Source: Trichococcus shcherbakoviae (GTDB lineage: Bacteria; Bacillota; Bacilli; Lactobacillales; Aerococcaceae). From it: a DNA stretch of 64,000 nucleotides. Made by a program: the position numbers and the translations under genes. Below are positions 41,846-58,755 of this stretch, in pieces; position 1 is the stretch's first letter; each line of letters starts with the position of its first letter. The notes below the pieces were generated by a model. It was not told where the DNA came from, ran no database searches, and saw nothing but the letters and a program-made list of their open reading frames with translations. The stretch is from NCBI RefSeq assembly GCF_963666195.1, contig NZ_OY762653.1:1302001-1366000 (forward strand). Direction: 5' to 3'.

Positions 41846-42000
41846 CCTATTTTATCTTAATTTTTTTATAATAGCCCGCTTCTTAGACACTTATCATAAT
41901 ACCAATGCGGAAGAAATGCAAACAGACACGCCCGCATTTTCATAAGTTGTGGCTAGCAAAAAGGTTGCATCCGGAAATTAAATATGTGCTCAAAAATAAC

Positions 42001-42160
42001 CCGCCAAAACCACGTTGGCGGGCAAACTCAGTTCAAATTACCGGCAGAAAACCCGCCAAAACAGCCTTGGCGGGGAATAACATCAGCGGACAACACGAGA
42101 TTCCCCGCGAAAGCAGTTTTGGCGGTGAATCTCGCCACAATCGCGACCCGCGGAACGGAT
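42001..42160. repeat. Intergenic palindromic array B, three units of about 51 bp
   Basis: Copies of CCCGCCAAAA...TTGGCGGG begin near 42001 and 42052. A third, inverted and imperfect (CCCCGCGAAAGCAGTTTTGGCGG), begins near 42104. Each arm pair can form a hairpin. Spacing is 51-52 bp, as in the other arrays of this window. Confidence 0.8.
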
Positions 42161-42173
42161 AATCATACCGTCA

Positions 42174-42219
42174 AACCACAAAGAAGGGCCATCCCATTTT
42201 CGAGACGGCCCCTGTGGTT
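42174..42219 (-). terminator. Terminator of trmR
   Basis: Outer arms AACCACA/TGTGGTT and inner GGGCCATC/GACGGCCC (one mismatch) form a long hairpin right after the stop codon. Confidence 0.75.
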
Positions 42220-42220
42220 C

Positions 42221-42949
42221 TTATGCGCGATTTTGGGTCTCTGCTTTGATTTCATCGAGGATGTAGCCGAAATCAAAGTCTTCTTTTTTGACGATCAGCA
42301 AGAGGCCATCACCAAGAGGCACGAGGGAGGTTTCCAATGCCGGGTGGTCCAATACGGTATCCATCAGTTTGTTCAGACGGCGGTGAATTTTGCGGACCCT
42401 TTTGGGAACATCGGCTTCATCATCCAGGATGGTTCCGCCTTGGAAAACATCATCGATGACTAGCATGCCGTCTTTCTTCAGAAGCCGGATGCAGTGGGGC
42501 AAAAATTCATAATATTTTGATTTCGCGCTGTCCATAAAGATGAAATCATACGGTCCTTCCAAAGTAGGCAGGACTTCCGCCGCATCGCCTTCCAGCAGCG
42601 TCACTTTGTCCGCGATGCCGAGTTTTTCAAAATTCGCTTTGGCGTGGTTGATCATGACTTCAAAACGATCGATGGTCGTGACGTGGCCTTGCGGTCCGAC
42701 ATGCTGCGCCATCAGGCTGCCTGAGAAGCCGATCGCCGCTCCTATTTCCAATATTTGTTTCGGTTTGATCTGGCCCAGCAGCATATTCAGGAAAACAGCT
42801 GTTTCATGCGGGATGATCGGCACGCCTCTTTCATTCGCGGTCTTTTCCAGTTCCCCCAATTCTCCAGGGAAACGCTTCAGTCTGTCGCGCATAAAAGCGA
42901 CCAGTTCTTTCTTTACGACGGGTCTGTCCATCATTTCGTTCAATGCCAT
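42221..42949 (-). CDS. trmR: tRNA 5-hydroxyuridine methyltransferase TrmR (YrrM-like O-methyltransferase)
   Basis: 242 residues of the class I O-methyltransferase family 3. Motif I is EIGAAIGFSG, followed by TTIDRFEVM, LEGDAAEVLP, and DFIFMDSAKSKY with metal/SAM contacts. B. subtilis TrmR (YrrM) methylates 5-hydroxyuridine at tRNA position 34 to form mo5U; the match of length and the start (RPVVKKELVAFMRDRL) fits. The site AAGGAG precedes the ATG. It has terminators on both sides and stands alone. Confidence 0.82.
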   Translation of the reverse strand: MALNEMMDRPVVKKELVAFMRDRLKRFPGELGELEKTANERGVPIIPHETAVFLNMLLGQIKPKQILEIGAAIGFSGSLMAQHVGPQGHVTTIDRFEVMINHAKANFEKLGIADKVTLLEGDAAEVLPTLEGPYDFIFMDSAKSKYYEFLPHCIRLLKKDGMLVIDDVFQGGTILDDEADVPKRVRKIHRRLNKLMDTVLDHPALETSLVPLGDGLLLIVKKEDFDFGYILDEIKAETQNRA

Positions 42950-42989
42950 ACTTTTTTTCTCCTTATCAGATACTCTTTTATCAATGGCA

Positions 42990-43019
42990 ACAAGGCTGGG
43001 AAGGGATCCCAGCCTTGCG
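42990..43019 (-). terminator. Hairpin after the CNNM-family gene
   Basis: Perfect stem CAAGGCTGGGA (42991-43001) with TCCCAGCCTTG (43007-43017); the T tail is weak. It lies between the CNNM stop and the trmR start. Confidence 0.65.
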
Positions 43020-43020
43020 C

Positions 43021-44355
43021 TTATTCATCTTCAACAACCACTGTTTGGACGGGCTCTCTCGTGACACGGATGCCACGGATCCGGCCGCTTTCGACCTGAG
43101 TAGTCGTCAGCAGGTACTCTCCAGTCTGAATCGTCGCATGCTCATCATCTTTCGGAAAATAGCCGAGTTCCTCGATCATATAGCCGGCGATCGTATCCAC
43201 TTCTTCGGAAGCGAGCGCTGTTTTGAACAATTGATTGAACTTGTCCAACGGCATGCGTCCATTCACGACATAGTGATTGTCATCGATTTTTTTCGACAGG
43301 CGGTAAATTTCATCATATTCATCTTCAATGTCCCCAACGATTTCCTCCAGAAGGTCCTCAAGGGTGATGATCCCCTCCACGCCGCCGTATTCATCCTTGA
43401 TGATGGCCATATGCGTGTGGGTCTTGCGGAACTCGACCAAGAGATCATCGATATAAATAGTGGAAGGGACAAACAAAGGCGTATTGACCAACTCACGGAA
43501 AGCGATCCGCTCGAAACCGACTTCCTTTGACGCCTTCAAAACATTTTTCATATGCAGAACGCCGATGATATTATCCTTATCTTCCTCATAGACCGGAATC
43601 CGGGAATATTGGCTGTTCAGGACCAGTGCAATGTTGTATTCCAGATCATCATCCAGATCCATCATCAAGGTGTCGGTACGCGGCACCATCAATTCGCGGG
43701 CAAGCTTCGTGTCCAACGAAAGCACCCCCTGCATCATCGTGAACTCGGATGGGTCGATGACCCCTTCGCCTCGGCTCTGTGCCAGGATGGCCTTCATTTC
43801 ATCACGGGTGAGCTTCTCTTCCTCATTCGTGAATTCGATCGGCGTCAGCTTCTTCAGGATACCGGTCGAAAATGACAAAAGCCAAACAAACGGCTTGAAG
43901 AGGGTCTTGACGACAACGATTGGGCCAGCAGTGTGGCGCGCAATCGTTTCAGGCATCTGCAAGGCGATCTGTTTAGGGTACAGTTCGCCGAACACGAGCG
44001 TGATGTAGGAAAGGACAACGGTGATGATGATCATCGCTATCGTCTTGCCGCCGGTGATGCTTCCCAACAACGGTTCGATATAGCCGACGAAATTGGATGA
44101 AGCCGATGCACTGCTGAAGAATCCGGCAAACGTGATGGCAACTTGGATAGTGGCCAAGAAATCATCCGGATTCTCTAAGAGACGCAAAACTTTCTGTGAT
44201 TTCTTGTCGCCGTCTTTGGCCAGCTTCTCGATTTTGGAACGGTTGATGGAAACAAATGCCAATTCGGCTGAGGCGAAATAAGCATTCAGTAAAGTCAGGG
44301 TTAGGATCAATGCTATTTTTGATAGTAACGACTGGCCTTCGGGGTCTGGGTTCAT
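43021..44355 (-). CDS. CNNM/CorC-type (HlyC-like) membrane transporter
   Basis: 444 residues. A DUF21/CNNM transmembrane domain (about 1-200) has four hydrophobic segments and the signature FGELYPKQIALQMPE. A CBS pair follows (about 215-345: VMVPRTD-like LMVPRTDTLMMD, and DEYGGVEGIITLEDLLEEIVGDIEDE). A C-terminal CorC_HlyC domain completes it. Family members take part in Mg2+ or Co2+ export; older names call them haemolysins. The ATG at 44355 behind AAAAGGAGA is preferred to the upstream start at 44388. Confidence 0.93.
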   Translation of the reverse strand: MNPDPEGQSLLSKIALILTLTLLNAYFASAELAFVSINRSKIEKLAKDGDKKSQKVLRLLENPDDFLATIQVAITFAGFFSSASASSNFVGYIEPLLGSITGGKTIAMIIITVVLSYITLVFGELYPKQIALQMPETIARHTAGPIVVVKTLFKPFVWLLSFSTGILKKLTPIEFTNEEEKLTRDEMKAILAQSRGEGVIDPSEFTMMQGVLSLDTKLARELMVPRTDTLMMDLDDDLEYNIALVLNSQYSRIPVYEEDKDNIIGVLHMKNVLKASKEVGFERIAFRELVNTPLFVPSTIYIDDLLVEFRKTHTHMAIIKDEYGGVEGIITLEDLLEEIVGDIEDEYDEIYRLSKKIDDNHYVVNGRMPLDKFNQLFKTALASEEVDTIAGYMIEELGYFPKDDEHATIQTGEYLLTTTQVESGRIRGIRVTREPVQTVVVEDE

Positions 44356-44740
44356 ATGATTTTTTTCTCCTTTTTTATGGTGAATCACGCAACTGGGTCA
44401 TGCCCTGAAACAAGGCTTTGTGCAGTTGCATAAAAATATATAGATTCTGTTCAATTATATACTACTAAATATAGTGAACTCCGTTCGAAAAATCAAGAGA
44501 TTTTTCATACGGTGCCTGCTGGAGCTTTCCGGCTCTTCTTCCTTCAGCCTTCCGGTACCGACAAGTGTTCTCATTCCAATCTAATGTTTAGCGGAGGCTA
44601 CCATGATCTTGGAAGGGCTTTACTGCTTGATTTATCAAATGTTTAAGAATTTCCAACTATGCGTTTATAACCGTTGCTTTTTTTTATTTTAATGTTATTA
44701 TCACATTAGACAACCGCGTTTTTAGGAGGATTTTAATAAT
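44356..44740. other. Divergent intergenic region of the CNNM and cbpA genes
   Basis: 385 bases without a gene. It holds the cbpA promoter: TTGCTT 44674-44679, a 16-base spacer and TATTAT 44696-44701 with an extended TG. The middle (44510-44620) is GC-richer and contains short complementary stretches, but no riboswitch consensus was recognised. Confidence 0.5.
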
Positions 44741-45382
44741 ATGCTTATCCGCTCACTTGCCATCCCCAAAAGGGAGTTGACCATCGTCAAAGAGTCAGCC
44801 ACACTTCGGGATGCACTGGATATCCTTGAAGATTCCGGCTACCGTTGCGTTCCGATCTTGGACGAAACAGAAACCATTTTTCGTGGAAATATCTACAAAA
44901 TGCATATCTATCGGCACAAAGCGAACGGCGGGGACATGAACCTGCCCGTCACGCATCTGCTGAAGAATGCCACAAAATTCATTTCGATAGACAGCTCATT
45001 CTTTAAGGTATTTTTTACCATCAAAGAATTGCCCTACATTTCCGTTTTGAATAAGGACATGACCTTCTACGGCATTCTGACCCATAACGCCTTGTTGAAC
45101 ATGTTGGCCCAATCATGGAGCATTGATGTCGGCAGCTATGTGCTGACGGTCATCGCGCCCGGCCAGAAAGGCGATCTATACCATATCACCAAAATCATCA
45201 ACCGCTACTCCTCCATCGCCAGCTGCATTTCCTTGGACATAAACCGGGAAGACGCGTTGCGCAGGGTATTGGTCACTTTACCAGCTGGCACGCCCAAACA
45301 GGTGCTGGACTCCATCGTAAAAGCGCTGGAGCGTAAGGATTTCCGCGTGACGGAAATCGAAAATCTGCAAGTCGATTTTTGA
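44741..45382 (+). CDS. cbpA: Cyclic di-AMP-binding CBS protein CbpA
   Basis: 213 residues with two CBS motifs (about 5-120) followed by an ACT-like domain (130-213). Sequence blocks such as LEDSGYRCVPILDE, FRGNIYKMHIYRHKA, GGDMNLPVTHLLKNATKFI and IDVGSYVLTV coincide with Listeria CbpA, which binds c-di-AMP and affects (p)ppGpp metabolism through Rel. AGGAGG lies 10 bases before the ATG. One of the few plus-strand genes in this half of the window. Confidence 0.9.
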   Translation: MLIRSLAIPKRELTIVKESATLRDALDILEDSGYRCVPILDETETIFRGNIYKMHIYRHKANGGDMNLPVTHLLKNATKFISIDSSFFKVFFTIKELPYISVLNKDMTFYGILTHNALLNMLAQSWSIDVGSYVLTVIAPGQKGDLYHITKIINRYSSIASCISLDINREDALRRVLVTLPAGTPKQVLDSIVKALERKDFRVTEIENLQVDF

Positions 45383-45396
45383 AATCCAACCCGTCA

Positions 45397-45528
45397 CATC
45401 AGGTGTCCGGAGCGGCGTTTCCCGGTGTGGAAACCTTCATCGGGAATTCCACTCCGGACGGGTGGCATTTTCCCGGCGAGGCGGCCTTCATCGGGAATTC
45501 CGCTCCGGCTCCAGACGCCCGCTCGATC
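45397..45528. repeat. Intergenic palindromic array C1
   Basis: Two-plus GC-rich units: CCTTCATCGGGAATTCC starts at 45434 and again at 45485, 51 bp apart. Each is preceded by CCCGGYG and followed by CTCCGG. The arms CTCCGG/CCGGAG can pair. It lies between convergent cbpA and the hydrolase gene. Confidence 0.8.
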
Positions 45529-45540
45529 TAATGATTAATA

Positions 45541-45582
45541 AAAAAAAGTCGGACAAAGCCTTGTGCTTGTCCGACTTTTTTC
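45541..45582. terminator. Bidirectional terminator
   Basis: AAAAAGTCGGACAAAGC pairs with GCTTGTCCGACTTTTT (one G-T). It serves cbpA and the hydrolase on the other strand. Confidence 0.92.
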
Positions 45583-45595
45583 GCGTGTACTCGGA

Positions 45596-46243
45596 TCAGC
45601 GAGTAGCGCCATTCAAATAGGGGTTTGAATAGATTTCTTCCCTCACTGTCGTAGGATCGCCGTGTCCCGGGAACAGGACCGTTTCCCCTGGAAGAGGTAC
45701 GATATATTTCTGGATTCCTTCGATCAAAGTTTCATGGCTGCCGCCCGGCAAATCGCTGCGTCCGACGCTGCCTTTAAAGATGACGTCCCCAACGATTGCG
45801 AACCCGTTCTCGCGGAAAATGAAGACGGTGCTTCCTGGCGAATGTCCGGGAATGTGTTGCATCTCAAAACGGAATTCGCCGATTTCGTAAGGCCCCATCT
45901 CCTCGAAGAAGACATCCGCTTCCTTCGCCAGTCGGACATCCGGAACGTTCGGATTGCGTGCTGATCCGTTCAGTTCCGGATCCAACAGCCATTCCCGTTC
46001 GATAGGATTTTGATAGACGGGAACGTCGTATTTTTCCCGGATTGTTTCGAGGGCCCCTATGTGATCATAGTGCGCATGGGTCAACACGATCGCTATCGGA
46101 TGCAACTCATTCTCTTCGATGGCTGCGATGATGTCCTCCGCTTGCTCACCTGGATCAAAGATGATTGTGTCATTCTCATGGTCGCCGATCAAAAAATAAC
46201 AGTTTTCCTGGATAGGACCGACTGTAATTGCGTACATTTCCAT
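45596..46243 (-). CDS. Metallo-beta-lactamase-fold hydrolase (glyoxalase II-like)
   Basis: 215 residues. Metal motif THAHYDH, then a distal His in HIPGHSPGS, Asp in IVGDVIF, and His in FPGHGDPT complete the binuclear site. The family includes hydroxyacylglutathione hydrolases and YqgX of B. subtilis (bacillithiol-linked glyoxalase II type). It starts at ATG 46243 behind GGAGG. No partner glyoxalase gene is nearby. Confidence 0.9.
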   Translation of the reverse strand: MEMYAITVGPIQENCYFLIGDHENDTIIFDPGEQAEDIIAAIEENELHPIAIVLTHAHYDHIGALETIREKYDVPVYQNPIEREWLLDPELNGSARNPNVPDVRLAKEADVFFEEMGPYEIGEFRFEMQHIPGHSPGSTVFIFRENGFAIVGDVIFKGSVGRSDLPGGSHETLIEGIQKYIVPLPGETVLFPGHGDPTTVREEIYSNPYLNGATR

Positions 46244-46385
46244 ATATTATTTCCTCCCTCTTTTTCGATTACCTCTCTATTATAAGAGAACGATGAGAAA
46301 TATCCTAGCAAAAAAACAAGAGTCTGTGCTGTTCATCCAGCAAAAGCCCCCGTTCTCCAGTTTTTTCATATGAAATTTTAATGGA

Positions 46386-46874
46386 TCAGGCCATTTTCTC
46401 GGCAAAACCGATGATTTTGTTCATGTATTTCATGAGCGGTGCTGAGACAACCAGTACGACGGCTTCACCGAATGCCGCTGTCACAAAGCTGAACCAGAAA
46501 GGCAAATCAAGAACGATGTAGAGTTCGATCGCTACAAGGACCATCGTCATCGTGAAGACGAACGCGGTCATCATCATTCGTTTCATTTCAGAATCGTTGG
46601 GTTTGAATAATTTTTCCAGAATAAGGAAAGAGATCAACGTCTGACCAAATCCGAACACCAAGTCCCAAGCCCCTAATGTTGAAAAGATCAGATTGGCGAT
46701 AAAAACACCCGCCAAAACACCGTATTTATAATCTTTGTGGTAGCCCACCAAATGATTCAGCATTTCTGAAACGCGGAATTGGACGGCACCGAACGACATA
46801 AAAGCAAAAATCCCTGTCAACGCAACATAAAGCGCTGCGATAATTGTATTGATAACCATTTTTCTTGTACTCAA
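46386..46874 (-). CDS. queT: Queuosine precursor transporter QueT
   Basis: 162 residues with five or six hydrophobic helices. QueT is the substrate (S) subunit of an ECF-type importer of queuosine precursors such as preQ1. The sequence keeps the FRVSEMLNHLVGY and GxWDLVFGFGQT-like motifs. The start is TTG at 46874, fixed by GGAGG eight bases before it. A preQ1-I riboswitch covers that ribosome binding site, which both supports the function and sets the start. Confidence 0.93.
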   Translation of the reverse strand: MSTRKMVINTIIAALYVALTGIFAFMSFGAVQFRVSEMLNHLVGYHKDYKYGVLAGVFIANLIFSTLGAWDLVFGFGQTLISFLILEKLFKPNDSEMKRMMMTAFVFTMTMVLVAIELYIVLDLPFWFSFVTAAFGEAVVLVVSAPLMKYMNKIIGFAEKMA

Positions 46875-46880
46875 CCTAAT

Positions 46881-46922
46881 AACCTCCTAGTTTTTTTTCG
46901 TGGGATGGTAGACGAACCACGC
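46881..46922 (-). promoter_or_regulatory. preQ1-I riboswitch in front of queT
   Basis: On the minus strand the hairpin CGTGG/CCACG (46921-46917 with 46903-46899) has a loop beginning TTC and containing TAC, closed by CCC. It is followed by an A-rich stretch and CTA directly before GGAGG. This is the class I preQ1 layout (stem, C-rich closing side, A-rich tail forming a pseudoknot). Because the aptamer overlaps the ribosome binding site, translational control is expected. Confidence 0.85.
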
Positions 46923-47049
46923 ACTCCTTCGAGAGCTCAAACAGTTTACCATACATGTTCTCTTTTGAAAACGACTAATGGCGCATTTTCATCTGATTTT
47001 CATTACCTAAAGGAAAGAGCGGCAGAGATGCGGATTCCCCGTATGACTG

Positions 47050-47215
47050 TTCTTCTCCGGTGAAGCGCTTCTGGACGGAGGTGGGATTCCGTTCGGCAGC
47101 GCTCCTCCGGCGAAGGGATGCTGGCCGGAGTTAGGATCCCATTCGGGCAACTCACCTCCGGCGAACCTGCTTCTGGCAGGAGGTGACGCTCTCAGGTGAC
47201 TTCGCTCCGTCTTTC
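47050..47215. repeat. Intergenic palindromic array C2
   Basis: CTCCGGYGAA occurs at 47055, 47105 and 47156 (steps of 50 and 51 bp). Between them are GGACGGAG, GGCCGGAG and GGCAGGAG, about 25 bases after each, so each unit can fold back. It lies between the queT leader and the alr terminator. Confidence 0.8.
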
Positions 47216-47221
47216 GCGCAG

Positions 47222-47273
47222 CAAAAAATCTGTGGAATGCCTTCCCTTGTCAGGCACCCCACAGATTTCCCAT
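47222..47273 (-). terminator. Terminator of acpS-alr
   Basis: AAATCTGTGG...TGCCT pairs with AGGCA...CCACAGATTT; on the minus strand T6 follows. Confidence 0.9.
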
Positions 47274-47277
47274 TTTT

Positions 47278-48399
47278 CTATTTGTAGACGCGCGGAACGC
47301 GGGCGTTGATTCCCGTCAAGAGTTCATAGCCAATCGTATCGATCGTTACCGCCATTTCGGAGGGATTGTTGACGAGTCCGCCGTTTTCCCCCAAGAGCGT
47401 CACTTTTGTTCCGACCGGATATTCTTTCGGCAGGCTGATCATGCATTGATCCATGCAGATGACTCCCCGGATCGGACAACGCTGGCCATCCACAATGACT
47501 GTCTGATGGCGAAGATCCCGTCTCCACCCGTCGGCATAGCCGATCGGAAGCGTAGCGATCCATTCTCCCTCAAAAGCACGGTAGCGGGCGCCGTATGCGA
47601 TTGTGTCGCCTTCATGCATCTGTTTGACGTAGCTGATCTGGGTATCCAACTGTACGGATGGCTTCAGTTCATAAGGAAGCTCCAACACGGTGTCGGAAGG
47701 GTTGTAGCCGTACATTGCGATTCCGACGCGGACCGCATCCGTCCGAAACGCTTCATGCCAAAGCGAAATCGCGGAATTCGCCAGATGCACAATCGGCGGT
47801 CGTTGCGCCATCGCCTGCAAAATCTCTTCAAACAAAGTCAGCTGGTGCTCCACCAATGTCGGATCTTCACCGTCGGCCGTTGCGAAGTGGGTAAAGATAC
47901 CTTCGAAAACAAAGCCATCCAATTCGGCAATACGCGCTTCGAAGGCCTGGACCTCCTCGACCGTACGCAGACCAATGCGGCCCATACCGGTGTCGATCGC
48001 CAAATGCACACGGACCGGCAGCTCCGTTTTCCGTTCCTGCAGATATGGCAAAGCCGCTTCCAGCCATTCCGCTGCCGTGACGGCCACGCTGATTCCGTTA
48101 TCCGCTATAAGCGCAGCGTCTTCTGCCTCCGTTGGGCCAACAACCATGATGAAATCATCGGACAGACCATTCTCCCGCAGCTCCATTGCCTCATCCAACA
48201 GCGCGACACAAAAACCGTCCACACCAGCTTCCTTCGCCTTTTTCGCAACCGGGACGGCTCCCAGTCCATAGGCATCCGCCTTTACGACCGCGAAAAATTT
48301 CTTTCCAGGCGACAGACCCTTCCTGATTTGTTGGATGTTCCACGAAATAGCTTCCAAATCGACAGTTTCTATTGTGGGACGGTGCTTTCCTACTACCAT
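47278..48399 (-). CDS. alr: Alanine racemase
   Basis: 373 residues. Alr interconverts L- and D-alanine with PLP for peptidoglycan and teichoic-acid D-alanylation. The PLP lysine is Lys40 in VVKADAYGLG; the second catalytic Tyr is in DTIAYGARY; the GYADGWRR and CMDQCMI motifs are present. It follows acpS by 15 bases, the usual acpS-alr order of Gram-positive bacteria. Ddl and MurF, which use the product, lie 3-5 kb away. Confidence 0.97.
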   Translation of the reverse strand: MVVGKHRPTIETVDLEAISWNIQQIRKGLSPGKKFFAVVKADAYGLGAVPVAKKAKEAGVDGFCVALLDEAMELRENGLSDDFIMVVGPTEAEDAALIADNGISVAVTAAEWLEAALPYLQERKTELPVRVHLAIDTGMGRIGLRTVEEVQAFEARIAELDGFVFEGIFTHFATADGEDPTLVEHQLTLFEEILQAMAQRPPIVHLANSAISLWHEAFRTDAVRVGIAMYGYNPSDTVLELPYELKPSVQLDTQISYVKQMHEGDTIAYGARYRAFEGEWIATLPIGYADGWRRDLRHQTVIVDGQRCPIRGVICMDQCMISLPKEYPVGTKVTLLGENGGLVNNPSEMAVTIDTIGYELLTGINARVPRVYK

Positions 48400-48414
48400 T
48401 TGTAAAAGACCCCT

Positions 48415-48765
48415 TTACTTTTCTAATACCACTTGCGCGGCAATGATGTTCCCCGAATGGGTGATGGAAACGAATCCTGTCCCATCAAACGGAGATTTGG
48501 TTATTTCAGGCTTCCGGTTCTCTCCGGGCAAAATTTCGATATCTTGGAAAGACAGCTTGCCGATGCCTGTGCCATAAGCCTTCGAGAAAGCTTCCTTAGC
48601 GGCATAGCGACCGGCCAAAAATTCCATTTGGCGTGATCCGCTCAGAGCCAGGAACAACTTCAGTTCCGCTTCGGTCAGAACCCGTTCCGCAAAATCCGAA
48701 CGCCGATTGTAGGCTTTCGTGATGCGGTCCAGCTCGGTTACGTCCAATCCTATTCCATAAATCAT
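48415..48765 (-). CDS. acpS: Holo-[acyl-carrier-protein] synthase AcpS
   Basis: 116 residues. AcpS transfers the 4'-phosphopantetheine arm of CoA to acyl carrier protein. Signature blocks MIYGIGLDVTELDRI and RYAAKEAFSKAYGTGIG hold the Mg2+-binding Asp and Glu and the catalytic Lys. ATG 48765 is chosen since it begins the known N-terminus; a GTG three codons upstream is possible. It shares a transcript with alr. Confidence 0.95.
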   Translation of the reverse strand: MIYGIGLDVTELDRITKAYNRRSDFAERVLTEAELKLFLALSGSRQMEFLAGRYAAKEAFSKAYGTGIGKLSFQDIEILPGENRKPEITKSPFDGTGFVSITHSGNIIAAQVVLEK

Positions 48766-48834
48766 TCCAATCACCGCCTATTCTGCATGCATTGTTCTCA
48801 TTTTACCAAAAACAACATAAATTTTCACCATAAG

Positions 48835-48880
48835 AAAAACCTCTTCTCCAATTGGCCTACGCCAGGGGAAGAGGTTTTGA
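48835..48880 (-). terminator. Terminator of cshA
   Basis: AAAACCTCTTC pairs with GAAGAGGTTTT around a loop of about 20 bases; on the minus strand it ends TTTTTC. Confidence 0.85.
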
Positions 48881-48887
48881 TCACGAA

Positions 48888-52237: not shown

Positions 52238-52284
52238 ATTTGGTTCCTCATTTCCAATTATTTCTCAGAAGCCCGATCTAAAAA

Positions 52285-52362
52285 AGGCCGTCCTTCCCTG
52301 GGTTCGCAGCAAGCATTCCATGCTTTTGGTGCTGCTGGCGATCAGGGAAATCACGGCCTTTC
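52285..52362 (-). terminator. Long hairpin terminator between ddl and murF
   Basis: GGCCGT, TCCCTG and GCAGCAAGCA segments pair with TGCT...TGCTGC, CAGGGA and ACGGCC across a 70-base hairpin. On the minus strand T6 follows. Confidence 0.85.
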
Positions 52363-52367
52363 ATTCA

Positions 52368-53453
52368 TCATTCTACAAATTGATAAGATAGTTTTTCTTC
52401 ATGGCGTTTTAAAGCCAATTGGATCAATTCTTCCACCAGATCACTGTACTTCAACCCAGTTTGTTCCCAAAGCAACGGATACATGCTGCGGGAAGTGAAG
52501 CCAGGCAAAGTATTGACTTCATTGATGTAGATTTCATTGTTTTTGGTCACAAAGAAATCACAACGGCTCAACCCGCTGCCGTCAAGCGCTCGGAAAGCGA
52601 TCGTTGCATAATTCTGCAATTTGGCAGTGATTTCTTCCGGTAATTCAGCCGGAATCTGCAGCAGCACTTCTTCATTGCCGTACTTCTCTTCGTAGTCATA
52701 GAAATCTTTGGTTTTAACGATTTCACCGGGTACGGAGGTATGAACATCGTCATTACCCAATACCGCGATTTCGATTTCACGGGCTTCGATGCCTTGTTCA
52801 ACGACCACGCGACGGTCATAGCGGAAAGCCGTTTCGATCGCTGCAGTCAACTCTTCAAGATTCGTAGCTTTAGAAATGCCGACGCTTGAGCCCATATTGG
52901 CTGGCTTGATGTACATCGGATAAATCAGGCTGCCTTCGCATTGGATAAAGATCTTCTCGCGGTCATTTTTCCAGTCGTTACGGGTAACGGCCACGTAAGG
53001 CACTTGCGGCAACCCTGCTTGTTGGAAAAGATGCTTGCTGACGATTTTGTCCATTCCGCTGGCGCTGGCAAGGACACCACAGCCGACATACGGCATATTA
53101 AGGACTTCAAAAAGCCCTTGCACCGTTCCATCTTCTCCGTTGGGGCCATGCAATACGGGGAAAATGACAGCATCCTCAGACTGGATGTCTGCAGGGGAAA
53201 TAAGTTCGCCGTAGGATTTGCCATCTTGCGAATCAGCAAAACGCTTCTCGGAACCCGGCTCTAAATAAAGGTTCTCAGAGAATGCCACCGGTTCAGAAAG
53301 GGATTGCCCTTGAATCCATGCGCCTGCCTTGGTGATGTAGACGGGCACAACTTCATAATAGTTGAAATAAATCGCCTTTATGATTGAATGTGCTGTCAGG
53401 ATCGAGATATCGTGCTCAGCGCTCTTTCCGCCGTAAATCAAATAAATTTTCAT
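52368..53453 (-). CDS. ddl: D-alanine--D-alanine ligase
   Basis: 361 residues with an ATP-grasp fold. The start MKIYLIYGGKSAEHDIS, HGPNGEDGT, the Ser loop GSSVGISKA, and the metal-binding end FVTKNNEIYINEVNTLPGFTSRSMYP are diagnostic. The residue before the ligand pocket determines D-Ala versus D-lactate use; the YCDFF/FF region here reads RCDFFV and was not assigned with certainty. GGAGG precedes the ATG. Confidence 0.96.
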   Translation of the reverse strand: MKIYLIYGGKSAEHDISILTAHSIIKAIYFNYYEVVPVYITKAGAWIQGQSLSEPVAFSENLYLEPGSEKRFADSQDGKSYGELISPADIQSEDAVIFPVLHGPNGEDGTVQGLFEVLNMPYVGCGVLASASGMDKIVSKHLFQQAGLPQVPYVAVTRNDWKNDREKIFIQCEGSLIYPMYIKPANMGSSVGISKATNLEELTAAIETAFRYDRRVVVEQGIEAREIEIAVLGNDDVHTSVPGEIVKTKDFYDYEEKYGNEEVLLQIPAELPEEITAKLQNYATIAFRALDGSGLSRCDFFVTKNNEIYINEVNTLPGFTSRSMYPLLWEQTGLKYSDLVEELIQLALKRHEEKLSYQFVE

Positions 53454-53603
53454 CGAGAAATCCTCCGAATTTTTTGATAACTACCTTAATCAAGAAACAT
53501 TGTACCATATTTATTTTTTACCTAAAACGATTTTTGTGAAAAGTGGCTTGGCCGCCCTCTTGCTGGGGCCAAGATGGCTTATTCCGGCTCAATGGATACA
53601 GAA

Positions 53604-53630
53604 AAAGCCTAAGTTCCGGCTTAGGCTTTC
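53604..53630 (-). terminator. Terminator overlapping the stop of the next gene
   Basis: AAAGCCTAAG (53604-53613) pairs with CTTAGGCTTT (53620-53629). On the minus strand TTTTTC follows; the stem starts inside the stop codon. Confidence 0.88.
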
Positions 53631-54378
53631 AATCAAAGTCTATGTCAATTTTCCACTCATTGCGTTCCATGTCATAACAGATGGTGCCCACCGAATCCTT
53701 TTCGTTGAAACGGCCGCCGATGCTGGCGTAACGGTCTTCCGCGATGAACAAGGGGATGCAGTATGTATTTTCTTCGATGCTCATCTGCCTGAAGGAGATT
53801 ACGGCCCCTTCTTTGAAGATCGGAATGAATTCCTTCACGCGTTCGATCGGGAATGGCGCAATTTCTTTGTCTTTCTGATAAAAGCGCTTCTTCTCATTCA
53901 CTTTTTCCTTCAACTTGACGGTGATGGCTTCGGCGAACAGCTCATGGAATTGTTCCAGGTAGCGATAGTACATTTTTATGAAGCCATTCGGCAACGTGAG
54001 GTAGATGTAGTTGTTTTGTAATTTATAATAGAACGGTGAGTGCAGGTGCGTATGCGCATGGGCGATATACAGGATCTCGGATATTTCGATTGGGGTGAGG
54101 AGATGCAACATATCCACATTCACAAAATCAATCCATTTTCCCATAGCGGTTTGATTGTCCGTCCCTTTTTGGAAGAACGCTTTTACGTTTTCTTGGCCTT
54201 TGATCACCTGAAAACCGGTATGATTATCATATGTTCCAATACTTTTTCTTCCATCCACCAACAATAAGTTTTCCGGAAGCTTCCGGGCTAACTTTGTGTA
54301 ATCCTTCACCGCTATCCCTTTGCTCAAAACATAATTGCTGACTGTTTCATAATGAACATATAACATATCTTCGCTCAT
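53629..54378 (-). CDS. Conserved protein of unknown function
   Basis: 249 residues, soluble, rich in aromatic and charged residues. It has no signal peptide. The middle contains HAHTHLHSPFYYKLQNNYIYLTLPNG. The triple His-x-His pattern (HAHTHLH) is reminiscent of a metal or phosphoesterase site but no known family could be assigned. The ATG at 54378 with AAAGGGGGGG upstream is preferred to 54417. It is monocistronic between ddl and htpX. Confidence 0.7.
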   Translation of the reverse strand: MSEDMLYVHYETVSNYVLSKGIAVKDYTKLARKLPENLLLVDGRKSIGTYDNHTGFQVIKGQENVKAFFQKGTDNQTAMGKWIDFVNVDMLHLLTPIEISEILYIAHAHTHLHSPFYYKLQNNYIYLTLPNGFIKMYYRYLEQFHELFAEAITVKLKEKVNEKKRFYQKDKEIAPFPIERVKEFIPIFKEGAVISFRQMSIEENTYCIPLFIAEDRYASIGGRFNEKDSVGTICYDMERNEWKIDIDFD

Positions 54379-54597
54379 GAATGTTCCCCCCCTTTCCGAA
54401 ATATCCCTTATTATCATTCTACTACGTGCAAATCCGATTAAGGTATCAGTACCATGTTAATATTATTACAAATCCGTATCTTTTACAAAGATAATTTGCC
54501 TTTTTCCCCTATTTTTTTTCATAGCAACAAATTGAAAGGGTTTTCACATCAGAAACCGAACTTTATTTGTACAATTTGCATAAAATGTCCGAAAAAA

Positions 54598-54618
54598 GAA
54601 GCTATTTACATAGCTTCT
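54598..54618 (-). terminator. Terminator hairpin overlapping the htpX stop codon
   Basis: AGAAGCTAT/ATAGCTTCT perfect 9-bp stem with T6 on the minus strand; the stop codon of htpX is in the loop. Confidence 0.88.
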
Positions 54619-55511
54619 AATCGTTTGATTCGGTTTGCCGTTGAAGGGTGGGTCGAAAACAAGCCATCATTTTCTGCTTCGCCCTCCTTCATCCGTTTGA
54701 AAGGATTCACAATATAGAGCGAGGCACTGGCTGCATTCGCTGCCTCCATCGGGTCGCTTGTCGCTATTTTGATTAAAGCGGATTTCAGTCCTTCCGGATT
54801 GCGTGTGAACTCAATCGCACTCGCATCAGCCAGATACTCCCGGTTGCGGGAGAGTGCCAAGCGGATGATGGTGGCCACAAAGGGCGAAAGAACCAGGATC
54901 AGCAAGGAAAGGATCAGCAATATGATGCCCGCCCCTCCGCTGTTATCGCTTCTGCGTCGGCGACCGCCACCCCAAAACATCATCCGGGTGCTGAACTGGG
55001 CCAAAAACGCGATCAGCCCCGCTATCGCCAAAGCGACAGTGGATAAGCGGATGTCATAGTTGCGGATATGCGCGAATTCGTGCGCCAAGACCCCAGTCAG
55101 CTCTTCCCGGTTCAGTTTCTTCAACAATCCCGTCGTCACGGCGACAGATGCTTTTTCCGGCGAATTTCCGGCCGCAAACGCATTCGGGCTTTCATCCTCG
55201 ATGATGAAGATTCTCGGAAAAGGCAACCGTGTCACGATAGTCATTTCCTCGACGATATTCCAGAGCATCGGGTATTGCGCCTTATCCGTTATTTCCTTGG
55301 CATTGTTCAGGCTCATGACCACTTGTGTGGATTGTGCAACCATGATGACGACGTAGGCCAATCCGATGATCAAAGCAAGCGCAACACCGGACAAAGCGTT
55401 GTCCCAATTCAGATAGCCGATGGCCGCCCCCAATGCCGCAAACAGGAGAAAGAATAAGAATACGATCAGCACGGTGCGCCGTTTATTCTGCTCAATTTGT
55501 TGATGGAGCAA
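54606..55511 (-). CDS. htpX: Membrane metalloprotease HtpX (M48)
   Basis: 301 residues. Two N-terminal membrane helices (about 13-34 and 40-60), then the zinc motif HEFAH (144-148). The third ligand Glu is in SRNREYLADASAIE, followed by a further pair of hydrophobic segments. HtpX degrades damaged membrane proteins. lemA lies 36 bases upstream and is its usual partner in Lactobacillales, so they form a lemA-htpX operon. Confidence 0.95.
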   Translation of the reverse strand: MLHQQIEQNKRRTVLIVFLFFLLFAALGAAIGYLNWDNALSGVALALIIGLAYVVIMVAQSTQVVMSLNNAKEITDKAQYPMLWNIVEEMTIVTRLPFPRIFIIEDESPNAFAAGNSPEKASVAVTTGLLKKLNREELTGVLAHEFAHIRNYDIRLSTVALAIAGLIAFLAQFSTRMMFWGGGRRRRSDNSGGAGIILLILSLLILVLSPFVATIIRLALSRNREYLADASAIEFTRNPEGLKSALIKIATSDPMEAANAASASLYIVNPFKRMKEGEAENDGLFSTHPSTANRIKRLEAM

Positions 55512-55547
55512 AGGTACTCACCAACTTTCCGTCTAAATCATATTTTC

Positions 55548-56105
55548 TCAGAACGATACTTTCGGTACATTTTTTTCTTCTTCCGGGGTAGCCAAAACGA
55601 CTTCCGGACGGAAACCATGGACGTTTGCCACAACATTGCTCGGGAATGTCCCTAATTTGATGTTGTATTGCGTAACACTTGAATTGTACAATTGGCGGGC
55701 ATAAGCGATCTTATTTTCAGTTGCGGACAATTCTTCCTGTAATGCCAAGAAATTTTGGTTCGCCTTCAGATCGGGATACGCTTCCGCCAAAGCAAAAACA
55801 GTCCGCAATTGGCTCGAAAGTTGATTGGACAGTTCCATCTTCTTGGCCGGATCTTCGGTTCCCATATCCGAAATCATGTTCCGCAAATTGATGACTTTTG
55901 TCAAAGTTTCCTGCTCATGTTTTGCATAGCCTTTGACTGTCTCAACGATGTTCGGTATCAGATCGTTCCTGCGTTTCAACTGGACATCGATCTGGCTCCA
56001 AGCTTCCGTTACCCACAATTTATTTTTCACAAGACTGTTATACAACGAGATCCATACTGCCCCGATGATCGCTGCCACTACAATGATTCCTATTATCCAC
56101 TCCAT
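55548..56105 (-). CDS. lemA: LemA family protein
   Basis: 185 residues. An N-terminal signal anchor (IIGIIVVAAIIGAVWISLYNSL) is followed by the LemA helical bundle (WSQIDVQLKRRNDLIPNIVETVKGYAKHE and later FPSNVVANVHGFRPEV). The ATG at 56105 has AAAAGGAG about 10 bases upstream; a GTG three codons before is too close to that site. It forms an operon with htpX. The role of LemA is not well defined. Confidence 0.93.
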   Translation of the reverse strand: MEWIIGIIVVAAIIGAVWISLYNSLVKNKLWVTEAWSQIDVQLKRRNDLIPNIVETVKGYAKHEQETLTKVINLRNMISDMGTEDPAKKMELSNQLSSQLRTVFALAEAYPDLKANQNFLALQEELSATENKIAYARQLYNSSVTQYNIKLGTFPSNVVANVHGFRPEVVLATPEEEKNVPKVSF

Positions 56106-56287
56106 TTTGCTCACAGCTCCTTTTCTCTCTCACCGACCTAACGGCTAACCTAGACAAATTTCCGTCTACACCTTTCATTATAGAAGAGTCTATTCATTTT
56201 GTAAAAAAATAGACTAACTGCCTCTTCGCCGAAAAGTGTTGGCTTATGTGATATTATGAAGGAAAGAAAATCAGATGAGGTGTAATT

Positions 56288-57067
56288 ATGTATTTCATCC
56301 CGCAACACACTTTCAAAAATCTGCCCATCCTATTCAAAGCCGATCCGCTGTACAAAGACATCACCGCAGCCGAACTGCCTCGGGCCTATCTTGACCTGTT
56401 GGCGGAACAGAACGGCGGCTACCTGTTAAGTTCCCGCATCCAGACCAAAGAGCCGACATCGGATGGAATCGATTATGCAGCTGTCCATGCCATCCTGGGA
56501 CTTCACGACGATCCCAAGAATAGCCTGTATGCCCAACAAGAAATTGCCCGTTCAGCGGGTCTGCCGGACTATTTTGTGCTTTTCAGCAGCAACGGCAACC
56601 AGCTATTTGCCTTCGATTATTCAAAACTGTCCCCGTCCGGCGAGCCGAGCATCCGGCACATCGACATCGAAACGGACAATTGGCAGACTGTCGCTGCCGA
56701 TTTTGGTCAATTTCTGAACAACCTGACACCGGGACCGCTGACTGTTCCAGAGGAAATCCGGCTCACGCACACGGAAGGTGCGCACGCCTTTTTATTGGCC
56801 GATGCCGCGGAATTGCCTGAGCTGTTTCTGCATTTTGAGGATGACCCGGACAAACAATGGTATCTCCAATGGATAGCGCATTTTTCCGACCATCCCGATG
56901 CGGCCTGCCGGACAGTCGCTTGCGAAGCGCTGGAAACGCAGATCCTCTACTTCAGGAACGAATTGCCGGATACGGTCCACGTTGTGCTGGCGAACTTTCT
57001 TGCCGATGCTGACCCCACAATCCAAGCGCTGGCGAGAACGCTGGAAAAAGAACTCGCGGATGAGTGA
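56288..57067 (+). CDS. SMI1/KNR4 (SUKH) family protein
   Basis: 259 residues. The first 150 residues have the SUKH fold pattern: LPRAYLDLLAEQNGGYL at the start, then PDYFVLFSSNGNQLFAFDYSK. Asp/Glu-rich strands follow, and a C-terminal extension (about 155-259) looks like HEAT-type helices (HPDAACRTVACEALETQIL). SUKH proteins are often immunity proteins against polymorphic toxins, but no toxin gene is adjacent. GATGAGGTG precedes the ATG, with a TATTAT -10-like box nearby. Confidence 0.75.
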   Translation: MYFIPQHTFKNLPILFKADPLYKDITAAELPRAYLDLLAEQNGGYLLSSRIQTKEPTSDGIDYAAVHAILGLHDDPKNSLYAQQEIARSAGLPDYFVLFSSNGNQLFAFDYSKLSPSGEPSIRHIDIETDNWQTVAADFGQFLNNLTPGPLTVPEEIRLTHTEGAHAFLLADAAELPELFLHFEDDPDKQWYLQWIAHFSDHPDAACRTVACEALETQILYFRNELPDTVHVVLANFLADADPTIQALARTLEKELADE

Positions 57068-57105
57068 ATGCGTGCGGGTGCGCGCGGACAGTACCCACTC
57101 GTCCC

Positions 57106-57310
57106 GCTCGCCGGAGAAGGGCTCACAGAATCGGCACCAGCTCCGATGAGGAATCGCTCGCCGAAGCTGGTGCCGCGAAAATGCCGTCACTTCCGACGGG
57201 GAAGGGCTCGTCGGAGGTGGACCCGAAAAAGAAGTCGGAACTCCGGCGAAGCCTCCGTTCACCGGAGAAGTGATGTACTTTCGGTGAAGCGATCTTTCAC
57301 CGGAGAAGAC
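57106..57310. repeat. Intergenic palindromic array C3, four to five units
   Basis: The word GCTCG (later GTTCA) starts units at 57106, 57156, 57206 and 57257: steps of 50, 50 and 51 bp. Units contain CCGGAGAAG and CTCCGGCGAAG-type arms in alternating orientation. It lies between convergent genes. Confidence 0.8.
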
Positions 57311-57331
57311 AGGGACCTTATAACAAAAGCT

Positions 57332-57373
57332 AAAAGCAGGGGGTTGCCGCAATGCGGCACTCTCCTGCTTTTG
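57332..57373. terminator. Terminator of the DUF1801/OmdA gene
   Basis: AAAAGCAGG...GCCGC pairs with GCGGC...CCTGCTTTT; usable on both strands. Confidence 0.88.
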
Positions 57374-57379
57374 TTATTA

Positions 57380-58510
57380 CTATTGTTCCTTCAGCCACCG
57401 TTGATAAAGGTTCTTCGTCTTGTGTCCTTTGCCGAGGATATCGAGCATCTCCGTTCTGCGTTTCTCTTGCGTAGCAGGTTGTTTGGCACTGTAGATGTAG
57501 CGGGCCCAATCCCGCTGATAGCCCGGCGTCAGTTCCGCATACAGCTTCGCGGCATCACGATGCTCCACTTCCAGATATCCCTGCAAATCCGGAATGAATT
57601 GCTCATAGTCGGCCACATTGCCGCTGCTTGCTTTGGTTGGCTTGCCTTTTCCTTTGACATCATTTTTCATCCCGACGAGCGTGAACGTATCATCCAGCTT
57701 GACCATCCTCGCAAATTTCAGGGTGCTGTCGCCGACATAACCGCTGCCGTCGTCCACGCCCAGGCTCGGAAAGATGGCATCGCGGTGCACCGAAGTGTCA
57801 TAGGTCTTGTTCCCAATTTTCGGATAAGCGATATAAAGGTATCCTTCCGGATTCAGGCGCTCCGCTTTGATCGTATCCCATACGCGTTCATTCAGTTCCT
57901 CCAGCGTCAGGACGTAGGAAAAAATCAGATCGTATTTCCCGGAATCCAGATCCGTATCGTAGGCTTCCAGATCAGCAAAATCATCAGTCACAGCGCGCTC
58001 TTCCCCCAGAACGGCGCACTTTTGGAATTTTTCGAATCCCAGCCGCTTCGTGAGGGAAGTCGAAGACGGGAGCGGTTTGTCAGCAGCTTGTTCACCGTAA
58101 AGTTTGTGCGCATGAGCGATGTCTTCCCGGATCATCTCCTCCAGCACAGCCGTATCGATATCGGAAAGTTTATTGACGTACACGCAGCCCTTTCCGATTT
58201 TGTGTTTTCCGAGCTTCACAAGCAATTCTTCCCGTTTTTCCTCCGGTAGCATAAAATAAAACGTCAACGCCGTCTTGCGCGGCGAAAAGGCAGCCAGCGG
58301 GGCATCGCCTTCATGGCCGCTCGCGTACCGATAATGATATTTCCCGAATCCGATGATGCTCGGCCCCCACATTTTGGCTTTCTCTCCGGTCACTTCCGCA
58401 AACAACTTCAGCAGCGCATATGCATCCTCTTTCTTTTGCCGCTGCTGGATTTCCTCGATGAAATCCTGTACGGATACTTCCGTGGGTTTGGTCTTAGGTT
58501 CGTATGCCAT
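57380..58510 (-). CDS. Multi-domain protein: DUF1801 domain, unassigned middle domain, OmdA/YdeI-type C-terminus
   Basis: 376 residues. Residues 15-125 are a DUF1801 (YdhG-like) domain: KMWGPSIIGFGKYHYRYASG, then FSPRKTALTFYFM, then KIGKGCVYVNKLSDID. Residues about 140-280 form a second domain that resembles DUF3052-type small proteins in outline (KYDLIFSYVLTLEEL, GYLYIAYPKIGNK). The last 60 residues match the OmdA/YdeI pattern (LTPGYQRDWARYIYSAKQPATQEKRR). ATG 58510 behind GAGGGG is chosen; the open frame continues to 58669 through repeat DNA. Separate small proteins are the norm; function unknown. Confidence 0.75.
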   Translation of the reverse strand: MAYEPKTKPTEVSVQDFIEEIQQRQKKEDAYALLKLFAEVTGEKAKMWGPSIIGFGKYHYRYASGHEGDAPLAAFSPRKTALTFYFMLPEEKREELLVKLGKHKIGKGCVYVNKLSDIDTAVLEEMIREDIAHAHKLYGEQAADKPLPSSTSLTKRLGFEKFQKCAVLGEERAVTDDFADLEAYDTDLDSGKYDLIFSYVLTLEELNERVWDTIKAERLNPEGYLYIAYPKIGNKTYDTSVHRDAIFPSLGVDDGSGYVGDSTLKFARMVKLDDTFTLVGMKNDVKGKGKPTKASSGNVADYEQFIPDLQGYLEVEHRDAAKLYAELTPGYQRDWARYIYSAKQPATQEKRRTEMLDILGKGHKTKNLYQRWLKEQ

Positions 58511-58614
58511 CTCTCCGCTTCCCCTCTCGTTCCTTGTTAAAGCTATCATAGCAAACCCAACGACCACCCGCAAAATCCAAGCCTGGATAACAGCCGATAC
58601 ACGGGAAAGATACC

Positions 58615-58755
58615 GTTTCTCCGGGGAACAAAGGCTTCGCCGGAGTTCGGCCACATCTATAGACTTCAACTACGACGAGGCGGTGCTCATCGGAGCTGGG
58701 CCCATCAAATTACCGGCGTCCTCCGGGGAGCGGGCTCTCACCGGAGGACGCAACC
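58615..58755. repeat. Intergenic palindromic array C4
   Basis: CTCCGGGG at 58619 and 58721 lie 102 bp apart (two periods). CCGGAG follows each about 21 bases later (58640 and 58741), and a diverged copy lies in between (CTCATCGGAG at 58686). It lies upstream of the DUF1801 gene and before the rpmE2 terminator. Confidence 0.75.

What the first reader, a model, noticed from the sequence alone, without database searches (positions are those of the whole stretch)
42001..58755. Intergenic palindromic arrays with a common ~51-bp period but different sequences
Arrays occur at 5306-5460, 42001-42160, 45397-45528, 47050-47215, 57106-57310 and 58615-58755. In each, arms that can fold back alternate about every 23-28 bases, so full units repeat every 50-52 bp (measured steps 51, 51-52, 51, 50/51, 50/50/51, 102=2x51). 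The consensus differs: TTCGACAATTT in one, CCCGCCAAAA/TTTTGGCGG in another, CTCCGGYGAA/CCGGAG in four. All are intergenic, three between convergent genes. A conserved period without a conserved sequence suggests selection on geometry: five helical turns, or stacked RNA/DNA hairpins. It may be a DNA-bridging or nucleoid element, transcript-end protection, or a replicating repeat with private copies.
Basis: seen in the sequence. Interest (0 to 1): 0.78.

Follow-up and report, generated by a model that had tools for sequence, protein, structure and literature searches.

The report
Helically spaced palindromic intergenic repeat arrays
Between its genes this bacterium carries many small arrays of mirror-image DNA modules that differ in sequence but nearly all repeat every 50-52 letters, and some related bacteria have unrelated arrays at 31, 41, 51 or 62 letters, close to whole turns of the DNA helix, which hints that DNA geometry rather than sequence is being kept.

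Summary
The genome is a Trichococcus. In sampled intergenic DNA, self-similarity peaks most strongly at 50-52 bp (875 hits at lag 52; about 4 in shuffles). At least six palindromic families share it: 237 of 242 adjacent modules lie 49.5-52.5 bp apart, including 105 of 109 pairs whose flanks no longer match. Arrays gain and lose whole modules within one species. Family periods favour multiples of about 10.4 bp, but significance depends on counting (1 of 3000 nulls with every family; 181 of 3000 when equal periods in a genome count once). RNA roles find little support: no consistent G-U bias, and 13 of 23 arrays lie beyond predicted terminators. Covariation at orthologous loci is no better than shuffles. 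The sequences are not private. Best reading: DNA-level repeats of the BIME/BOX/STAR kind whose module length is held near whole helical turns. What sets the length is unknown.

The parts
5314..5451 (.). Array F4: AAATTGTYGAATG / CATTCGACAATTT arms, steps 52 and 51 bp, between convergent genes AIM24-like (4417-5184 +) and M20 amidohydrolase (5522-6694 -)
   Evidence: genes
42000..42125 (.). Array F3: three CCCGCCAAAA / TTTTGGCGGG palindromes (42000-42022, 42052-42074, 42103-42125); part of a dispersed three-palindrome element whose other copies match roughly 41973-42138
42184..42213 (-). Intrinsic-terminator-like hairpin after the O-methyltransferase gene (42221-42949 -), reached before the F3 array in the direction of transcription
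45419..45497 (.). Array F5: two modules TTCCCGG..CATCGGGAA (45419-45446, 45470-45497), 51 bp apart; four modules in the same-species genome G068
47055..47182 (.). Array F1: three modules CTCCGGYGAA..GGAG (47055-47080, 47105-47130, 47156-47182); absent in five sister species
57135..57305 (.). Array F1: modules 57135-57172, 57188-57219, 57241-57267 (50 and 50.5 bp) and an extra module 57279-57305 at a 38-bp step that G068 lacks
58619..58746 (.). Array F1: modules 58619-58645, 58670-58695, 58721-58746 (50.5 and 51 bp); orthologue recovered in seven other Trichococcus genomes in alignment A1 (partly deleted in G063)

Best explanation
These are DNA-level modular repeats. Each module is an imperfect palindrome (23-41 bp, family-specific) plus a spacer, and the sum is 50-52 bp, about five turns of B-DNA, so that successive palindromes face roughly the same side of the helix. 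SHOWN: several unrelated families share the module length; the length is kept where flanking spacer sequences are not; whole modules are gained and lost within a species; arrays are over-represented between convergent genes and rare in divergent (promoter) regions; another genus uses lengths of 31, 40-42, 52 and 62 bp. INFERRED: local copy number changes by replication slippage or unequal recombination; multi-module blocks were dispersed in the past by an unknown mobilisation; and something that reads DNA geometry (a protein contacting successive palindromes or extruded hairpins on one face, or the copying machinery itself) keeps modules near helical register without demanding a particular sequence.
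For: Period line at 50-52 and multiples. 237 of 242 adjacent modules at 49.5-52.5 bp, 105 of 109 among pairs with flank identity of at most 0.45. F2 loop exactly 11 nt in 117 of 119 distinct units with variable loop sequence. Arms, loops and spacers differ among families while the sum does not. Same-species changes in whole modules: 2 v 4 (regions differ by 102 bp), 7 v 3 (by 205 bp), 2 v 1 (by 54 bp), and a two-module F6 array absent from G068; 38 of 53 orthologous intergenic regions have the same length. Exact F1 arm 40-363 per Trichococcus genome (13 genomes) against at most 11 in 63 other genomes of the family; F2 hairpin in 10 of 13 against 0 of 63. G036: 77 non-coding tandem segments at 31-32 (5), 40-42 (51), 52 (1), 62-63 (15), 78 (1), 82-83 (4); 156 of 174 neighbour distances of ten motifs within 2 bp of a multiple of 10.33, where 39% of lengths would be. 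Jeotgalibaca 51, 51; Granulicatella 53; G050 51, 51. Rayleigh test with every palindromic family: R 0.74 at 10.35 bp, 1 of 3000 nulls; without the CRISPR, R 0.81, 0 of 3000. 13 of 23 non-divergent arrays shielded by predicted terminators. Convergent 7 of 34, tandem 7 of 191, divergent 0 of 46 regions. Arms diverge less than loops and spacers at two orthologous arrays: 0.11 v 0.18-0.19.
Against: Covariation at two orthologous arrays is not above shuffles. When each period counts once per genome group, the Rayleigh result is 285 of 4000 or, with all outside genera, 181 of 3000: not significant unless the CRISPR period (66) is removed (14 of 3000). One search had added Jeotgalibaca (51) and Granulicatella (53) but not two other outside segments (48 in L082, 81 in L049); one search puts them in. 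Which stretches to sample further was chosen. Most G036 segments are at 40-42, so much of the signal is one class, and neighbour distances from one family are not independent. Only 34 of the 77 G036 segments, and of nine in G007 only three at 82, pass the palindrome filter. Steps of 38 (F1), 40 (F6) and 47, 45 and others (G036) break the rule. Neighbours of different families share no common lattice: 28.5, 53, 57, 74, 74, 103 bp. Arm-to-arm distances differ among families, so no single protein geometry fits. Length between orthologues is only weakly better kept than in flanks (indel events to substitutions 3:145 v 16:254 and 9:131 v 18:178). F2 leans towards sense-strand G-U (10 v 3, p 0.09). 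No binding protein, mobilising enzyme or target-site duplication was established.
Confidence: 0.48

Rival explanations
1. Ordinary selfish or neutral intergenic repeats of the BOX, STAR or EFAR kind. The module length was fixed in one ancestor and inherited; families look unrelated only because sequence turns over fast and homogenises locally. No selection on geometry is needed.
For: Convergent enrichment as reported for BOX; local expansion of locus-specific modules as described for STAR; F3 copies share their inner spacers and F1 copies match over about 130 bp at 70-77%, so spacing within them can be inherited as a block; the 47050 array is missing from five species spread over the tree.
Against: Consensus units share no detectable similarity apart from a weak F1-F5 likeness; length is kept where flanks are at low identity; G036 holds several discrete lengths, and one family there uses both 40 and 62 bp.
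Confidence: 0.35
2. RNA hairpin arrays in 3' UTRs that protect or terminate transcripts.
For: Many arrays lie between a stop codon and a terminator or between convergent genes; 10 of 23 could be entered by a neighbour's transcript; F2 sense-strand G-U 10 v A-C 3 (p 0.09).
Against: F1, F5 and F3 show no excess of G-U over A-C on the sense strand (25 v 33, 7 v 12, 15 v 17); 13 of 23 non-divergent arrays lie beyond predicted terminators of their neighbours (crude predictor); no Rfam family matches the arrays in the window or in seven array-bearing stretches; RNA gives no evident reason for a fixed spacer length.
Confidence: 0.07
3. Family-specific operator arrays: each palindrome family is bound by its own dimeric protein, and arrays act as cooperative or titrating sites.
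For: F2 has 9-bp half-sites exactly 20 bp apart centre to centre (loop 11 in 117 of 119); arms are conserved more than loops and spacers.
Against: At least six families in one genome and 12 clusters in another would each need a protein, yet they use the same few module lengths; arrays sit near gene ends rather than in divergent promoter regions.
Confidence: 0.08
4. CRISPR-like acquisition of spacers of fixed length between palindromic repeats.
For: Spacers are often dissimilar and of constant length.
Against: Repeats are diverged rather than identical; extra modules carry copied spacers (L102 7 v 3); CRISPR arrays in the same genome look different (L104 and L108).
Confidence: 0.02

Closest known systems
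STAR elements of Staphylococcus (PMC3532100, passages seen)
   Same: Short conserved motif separated by 40-44 bp spacers, giving tandem repeats of about 50 nt; spacers distinct at each locus; copy number changes within a locus; intergenic; function unknown.
   Different: One direct-repeat motif, not palindromes; the STAR motif is not clearly enriched in the window (6 hits at up to 2 mismatches, 3.0 expected, 10 of 100 shuffles as many); no mention seen of several unrelated families sharing one period.
BOX elements of Streptococcus pneumoniae (PMC3049150, abstract and passages)
   Same: Modular, with a central module present in variable tandem number; stem-loops; over-represented between convergent genes; same order, Lactobacillales (recalled).
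   Different: Defined boxA and boxC ends, terminal inverted repeats and target duplications, none established here; several families instead of one.
REP/BIME elements with RAYT transposases (PMC2817692 and PMC3733652, abstracts and passages)
   Same: Palindromes of 20-40 bp in alternating arms, clustered, intergenic, genome-specific, with complementary stem variants.
   Different: No RAYT found: the four Y1_Tnp matches look like IS605 TnpA, each with a TnpB-like reading frame in the downstream sequence shown (TnpB named by eye); inter-REP lengths vary in the Stenotrophomonas BIMEs described there, whereas here they are nearly fixed.
NIME/dRS3 arrays of Neisseria (PMC3898611, passages)
   Same: 20-bp inverted repeats ATTCCC(N8)GGGAAT together with other repeat units in intergenic arrays.
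   Different: RS units of 30-160 bp; linked there to a phage integrase; no fixed period mentioned in the passages seen.
EFAR of Enterococcus (one mention seen in PMC3733652; details recalled)
   Same: Intergenic palindromic repeats of variable modular assembly in the same order.
   Different: Not compared at sequence level; no shared period known to me.

Membership tests
REP/BIME (RAYT-associated) | cognate RAYT gene flanked by the repeats | tested here: not met
   Y1_Tnp hits in the own genome: four, 117-152 aa, IS605-like with a TnpB-like frame downstream; the flanks were read by eye
REP/BIME (RAYT-associated) | short palindromes in alternating orientation, clustered, extragenic | tested here: met
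REP/BIME (RAYT-associated) | GTAG or CGTC tag at one end | not tested
   no tag search was made
BOX | boxA-boxBn-boxC modular order | tested here: inconclusive
   F3 copies share left and right ends around three palindromes, judged by eye; BOX sequences were not compared
BOX or MITE | terminal inverted repeats and target-site duplication | tested here: inconclusive
   empty sites at 47050 in five species; an A-tract direct repeat in K1Tr only, seen by eye
STAR | 14-bp motif T(G/A/T)TGTTG(G/T)GGCCC(C/A) | tested here: not met
   window only: no match with fewer than 2 mismatches and none of the six hits lies in an array
STAR | locus-specific spacers with local copy-number change | tested here: met
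CRISPR | identical repeats, unique spacers | tested here: not met
Known structured RNA | match to an Rfam model at gathering score | tested here: not met
   (window and seven stretches): the four matches lie elsewhere

The most novel reading that the evidence does not exclude
Trichococcus and some related Lactobacillales carry a sequence-blind system of palindromic intergenic arrays whose module length is a whole number of DNA turns characteristic of the genome (51 bp in Trichococcus, Jeotgalibaca and G050; 41 and 62 in G036; 41 in G007). Unrelated sequence families within one genome obey the same length, as if a genome-encoded, structure-reading ruler (an architectural protein or a copying enzyme) made or kept them.
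Probability: 0.28. Interest if true: 0.87.

Novelty: new variant of a known kind. Interest (0 to 1): 0.71.

Why it matters
Families of bacterial intergenic repeats are usually described one sequence at a time. Here the common property across unrelated sequences is module length, and across genera the lengths fall near multiples of the helical repeat. If that survives a wide survey, it turns the old question of what REP/BIME/BOX-like repeats do into a testable one about DNA geometry: which protein or copying step counts turns. It also offers a simple alignment-free way of finding such elements. If it fails, the arrays are still a set of intergenic repeat families in Trichococcus, not described in the papers I could search, with clear copy-number change within a species.

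Tried and rejected
RNA function: tested by G-U/A-C strand asymmetry and terminator positions, little support. Selection on pairing at orthologous loci: not above shuffle. A common lattice across neighbouring families: six cases, none agreeing. REP transposase: IS605-like only. Private copies: rejected. Hairpin scans over whole sequences with loose arms were too noisy and were replaced. Dissimilar-hairpin spacing: 12 pairs at 50-54 bp against 1-10 in other 5-bp bins, mostly diverged members of one family, not used as evidence. A quick chance figure for families sharing one bin rests on an arbitrary model and is not used. Literature: nine searches listed no paper on Trichococcus intergenic repeats or on helical quantisation of such repeats; lists were capped (10 of 4,465, 8 of 11) and only open-licence papers are held, so this is weak evidence of absence.

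Limits: gene calls were made by a simple codon-score script, so intergenic counts differ slightly between calls (14 arrays, CRISPR left out; 16, CRISPR included). Many loci were fetched because they match F1, F2 or F3, and related copies are not independent. One search had suggested that other genera lack the period (lag 51 had 87 hits, median 31); searches corrected that.
Full report
WHAT WAS CHECKED. The window lies at 1302001-1366000 of a 2,925,055-bp single-contig genome that belongs to Trichococcus: the CbpA protein of the window is 92-100% identical to that of seven Trichococcus genomes and 78% to that of Jeotgalibaca caeni. All six arrays were read and their inverted and direct repeats measured. 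Three arrays lie between convergent genes and three between genes in tandem (gene names; the start of the gene left of 58615 was judged by eye).

IS IT MORE THAN CHANCE? I sampled 38 evenly spaced 20-kb stretches plus two stretches chosen because they hold hits. In 316 intergenic regions of this sample and the window, the number of 12-mers repeated with at most two differences at a given distance shows a sharp line at 50, 51 and 52 bp (59, 165, 875 hits; shuffles 8.7, 2.7, 3.7; coding segments 2, 12, 1) and again at 100-104 (22, 28, 61, 52, 533). Smaller excesses at 73 (100) and 76 (37) were also seen. In the 38 even stretches alone, 16 of 274 regions pass the threshold at lag 49-53, against 0-3 in 13 control bins; G071 6 of 41, T. 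patagoniensis (G067) 12 of 66, G063 4 of 19. T. palustris, with two stretches, gives 1 of 22, no better than controls, although its genome holds 87 exact F1 arms.

WHAT THE MODULES ARE. Seven arm families were recognised: F1 CTCCGGYGAA/TTCRCCGGAG, F2 TTGTCCGAT-N11-ATCGGACAA, F3 CCCGCCAAAA/TTTTGGCGGG, F4 AATTGTCGAATG/CATTCGACAATT, F5 TTCCCGGYGAG/CTCRCCGGGAA, F6 ACATGAATAACT/GAATTCATGTTT, F7 TGTCGGYTGTT/AACARCCGACA. In one search, F1 (92 units, 0 in shuffles), F2 (46, 3), F5 (34, 2) and F6 (7, 0) are far above shuffles; F3 (46, 14) and F4 (30, 16) are less clean with those settings. With undetermined positions dropped, the consensus units of F1-F6 are unrelated by alignment except a weak F1-F5 resemblance (27 of 300 shuffles as good). 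Arms are conserved between loci while loops and spacers mostly are not.

THE INVARIANT. Over the Trichococcus sequence in hand at that point, 242 distinct adjacent pairs of one family lie 30-75 bp apart; 237 of them are 49.5-52.5 bp apart. Among 109 pairs whose flanks agree at no more than 45% of positions, 105 keep that length. The exceptions are 37.5-38 bp in F1 (four pairs) and 40 bp in F6 (one). Arms, loops and spacers differ among families (loop 11 in F2, 6 in F5, mostly 3 in F3, 19 in F7) while the sum does not. Two cautions: F3, and probably F1, are partly multi-module elements dispersed as blocks, so many of their pairs share ancestry; and neighbouring modules of different families follow no common lattice.

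EVOLUTION. Compared with a second genome of the same species (G068), 38 of 53 orthologous intergenic regions have equal length. The differing ones include whole-module changes: 2 v 4 modules at 45397 (102 bp), 7 v 3 in L102 (205 bp between regions that also differ by small indels), 2 v 1 in L101 (54 bp), one 38-bp step at 57106, and a two-module F6 array in L094 that G068 lacks; some other length differences involve no array of this kind. Across up to eleven relatives, the site at 42001 can hold F3 (this species), F1 (T. flocculiformis, K1Tr, G066, G071), F1 plus F2 (G063, and T. patagoniensis with eight complete F2 hairpins), or nothing (T. alkaliphilus, T. collinsii, T. paludicola). The 47050 array is absent from five species spread over the tree, perhaps by repeated loss. 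The exact F1 arm occurs 40-363 times in each of 13 Trichococcus genomes and at most 11 times in 63 other genomes of the family, mostly at the level of the reversed control (G003, 11 v 0, is an exception). The F2 hairpin occurs in 10 of 13 and 0 of 63.

DNA OR RNA? If the hairpins worked as RNA, G-U pairs should outnumber A-C on the transcribed strand. Counts on the sense strand of tandem regions are 25 v 33 (F1), 7 v 12 (F5), 15 v 17 (F3) and 10 v 3 (F2, p 0.09). With a simple terminator finder, 13 of 23 non-divergent arrays cannot be reached by either neighbour's transcript and 10 can. No Rfam family fits the arrays in the window or in seven stretches. In the even stretches, arrays occur in 7 of 34 convergent, 7 of 191 tandem and 0 of 46 divergent regions (Fisher p 0.0005 for convergent against the rest); two arrays in divergent regions were seen in the chosen stretch L132. 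At two orthologous arrays the arms diverge less than loops and spacers (0.11 v 0.18-0.19), but paired changes are no more frequent than in shuffles (99 of 500 and 56 of 500). So there is moderate conservation of arms, and no proof of selection on base pairing.

OTHER GENERA. A first comparison with 73 loci of other Lactobacillales showed no outstanding line at 50-52. A second, with one stretch from each of 20 genomes of other genera of the family, turned up unrelated arrays: AGAGGTTCA/TGAACCTCT at exactly 51 bp in G050, and several at 40-41 bp in G036 and G007. With 20 more stretches of G036 there are, in 62 kb of non-coding DNA, 77 tandem segments with periods 31 (4), 32 (1), 40 (17), 41 (32), 42 (2), 52 (1), 62 (14), 63 (1), 78 (1), 82 (3), 83 (1). 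Of these 34 pass a palindrome filter (31: 2, 40: 5, 41: 15, 42: 1, 52: 1, 62: 7, 82: 2, 83: 1), in 12 clusters. For ten motifs, 156 of 174 next-neighbour distances lie within 2 bp of a multiple of 10.33, where 39% of lengths would be; 47 bp (five times) is the main exception. In G007 the filter passes only three segments, at 82 bp; five at 41 do not pass. Among the 73 other loci, five of 24 non-coding tandem segments pass: two in Jeotgalibaca caeni at 51 bp, one in Granulicatella elegans at 53, and single ones at 48 (L082) and 81 (L049).

HELICAL TEST. Clustering the palindromic segments of Trichococcus, G036, G007 and G050 into 19 families gave a best Rayleigh period of 10.40 bp (R 0.80, none of 4000 uniform nulls); counting only distinct genus-period values gave 285 of 4000. 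The 66-bp segment is a CRISPR (36-bp repeat with unique spacers). One search removed it and added Jeotgalibaca and Granulicatella (R 0.88, 0 of 4000; strict set 7 of 4000; strict without the doubled periods 22 of 4000, best at 10.75), but left out the 48- and 81-bp segments. With all of them: every family and the CRISPR, R 0.74 at 10.35, 1 of 3000; without the CRISPR, R 0.81, 0 of 3000; strict set with the CRISPR 181 of 3000, without it 14 of 3000; strict, family only, 9 of 3000. So a preference near 10.4 bp is likely but rests on how families are counted and on a sample chosen in part after seeing the data.

INTERPRETATION. In kind these resemble BIME, BOX, STAR and NIME repeats. They are not members of the RAYT-REP family by the test made (no RAYT found) nor of STAR (motif absent from the arrays). 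What is new, as far as the searched papers go, is that unrelated families in one genome share a module length, and that the lengths used in different genera sit near whole helical turns. The reading I favour is an intergenic repeat class, locally expanded by slippage, in which a geometric requirement of double-stranded DNA keeps palindromes on one face. The chief rival is inheritance of one ancestral length with rapid sequence turnover. The discrete 31/41/62 classes within G036, and one family there that uses both 40 and 62, speak against simple inheritance but do not settle it.

Noticed in passing
L104 1-7496 and L108 1949-2127, 13732-14064 (own genome about 825-832 kb and 1127, 1139 kb): Two CRISPR-like arrays: 66-bp period with a GCTATAGTTTCCTTACAAAATCGGCTAAAATAAAAC repeat, and 71-73-bp period with a GGTTTCCGACCCCTCATTGGGGAGATGTTTCTTAAC-like repeat. 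cas genes were not sought.
   Followed up: no
window 46881-46926 (-): PreQ1 riboswitch just upstream of the queT-like gene 46386-46874.
   Followed up: no
window 48775-48887 against L133: G068 carries 217 extra bases in this intergenic region, by eye partly inverted: a different insertion-like element.
   Followed up: no
L132 (own genome 2440001-2460000): Dense cluster of F1 arrays with a higher-order repeat near 189 bp made of several modules; G071 has a similar series at steps of about 180 bp near 1562000.
   Followed up: partly
L126 2117-2841: A longer unit beginning GTGCCTAAGCTGA and containing CTCTTAGTGCGCGATTTCTACCCGGGATTCATCACGCTCTGCGTAGACGCGTTC occurs twice beside an F2 array: another repeat.
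   Followed up: no
copies aligned: Several F3 copies are preceded by a long hairpin of the type GGGGCTGTAT..AACCAGAA..TTCTGGTT..ATACAGCCCC, possibly a second dispersed terminator-like element.
   Followed up: no
F1 units, pair 7: One arm tends to carry C and the other T at the Y position (CA 26 and TG 23 against CG 22 and TA 9), fewer standard pairs than independence: an unexplained asymmetry of the module.
   Followed up: partly
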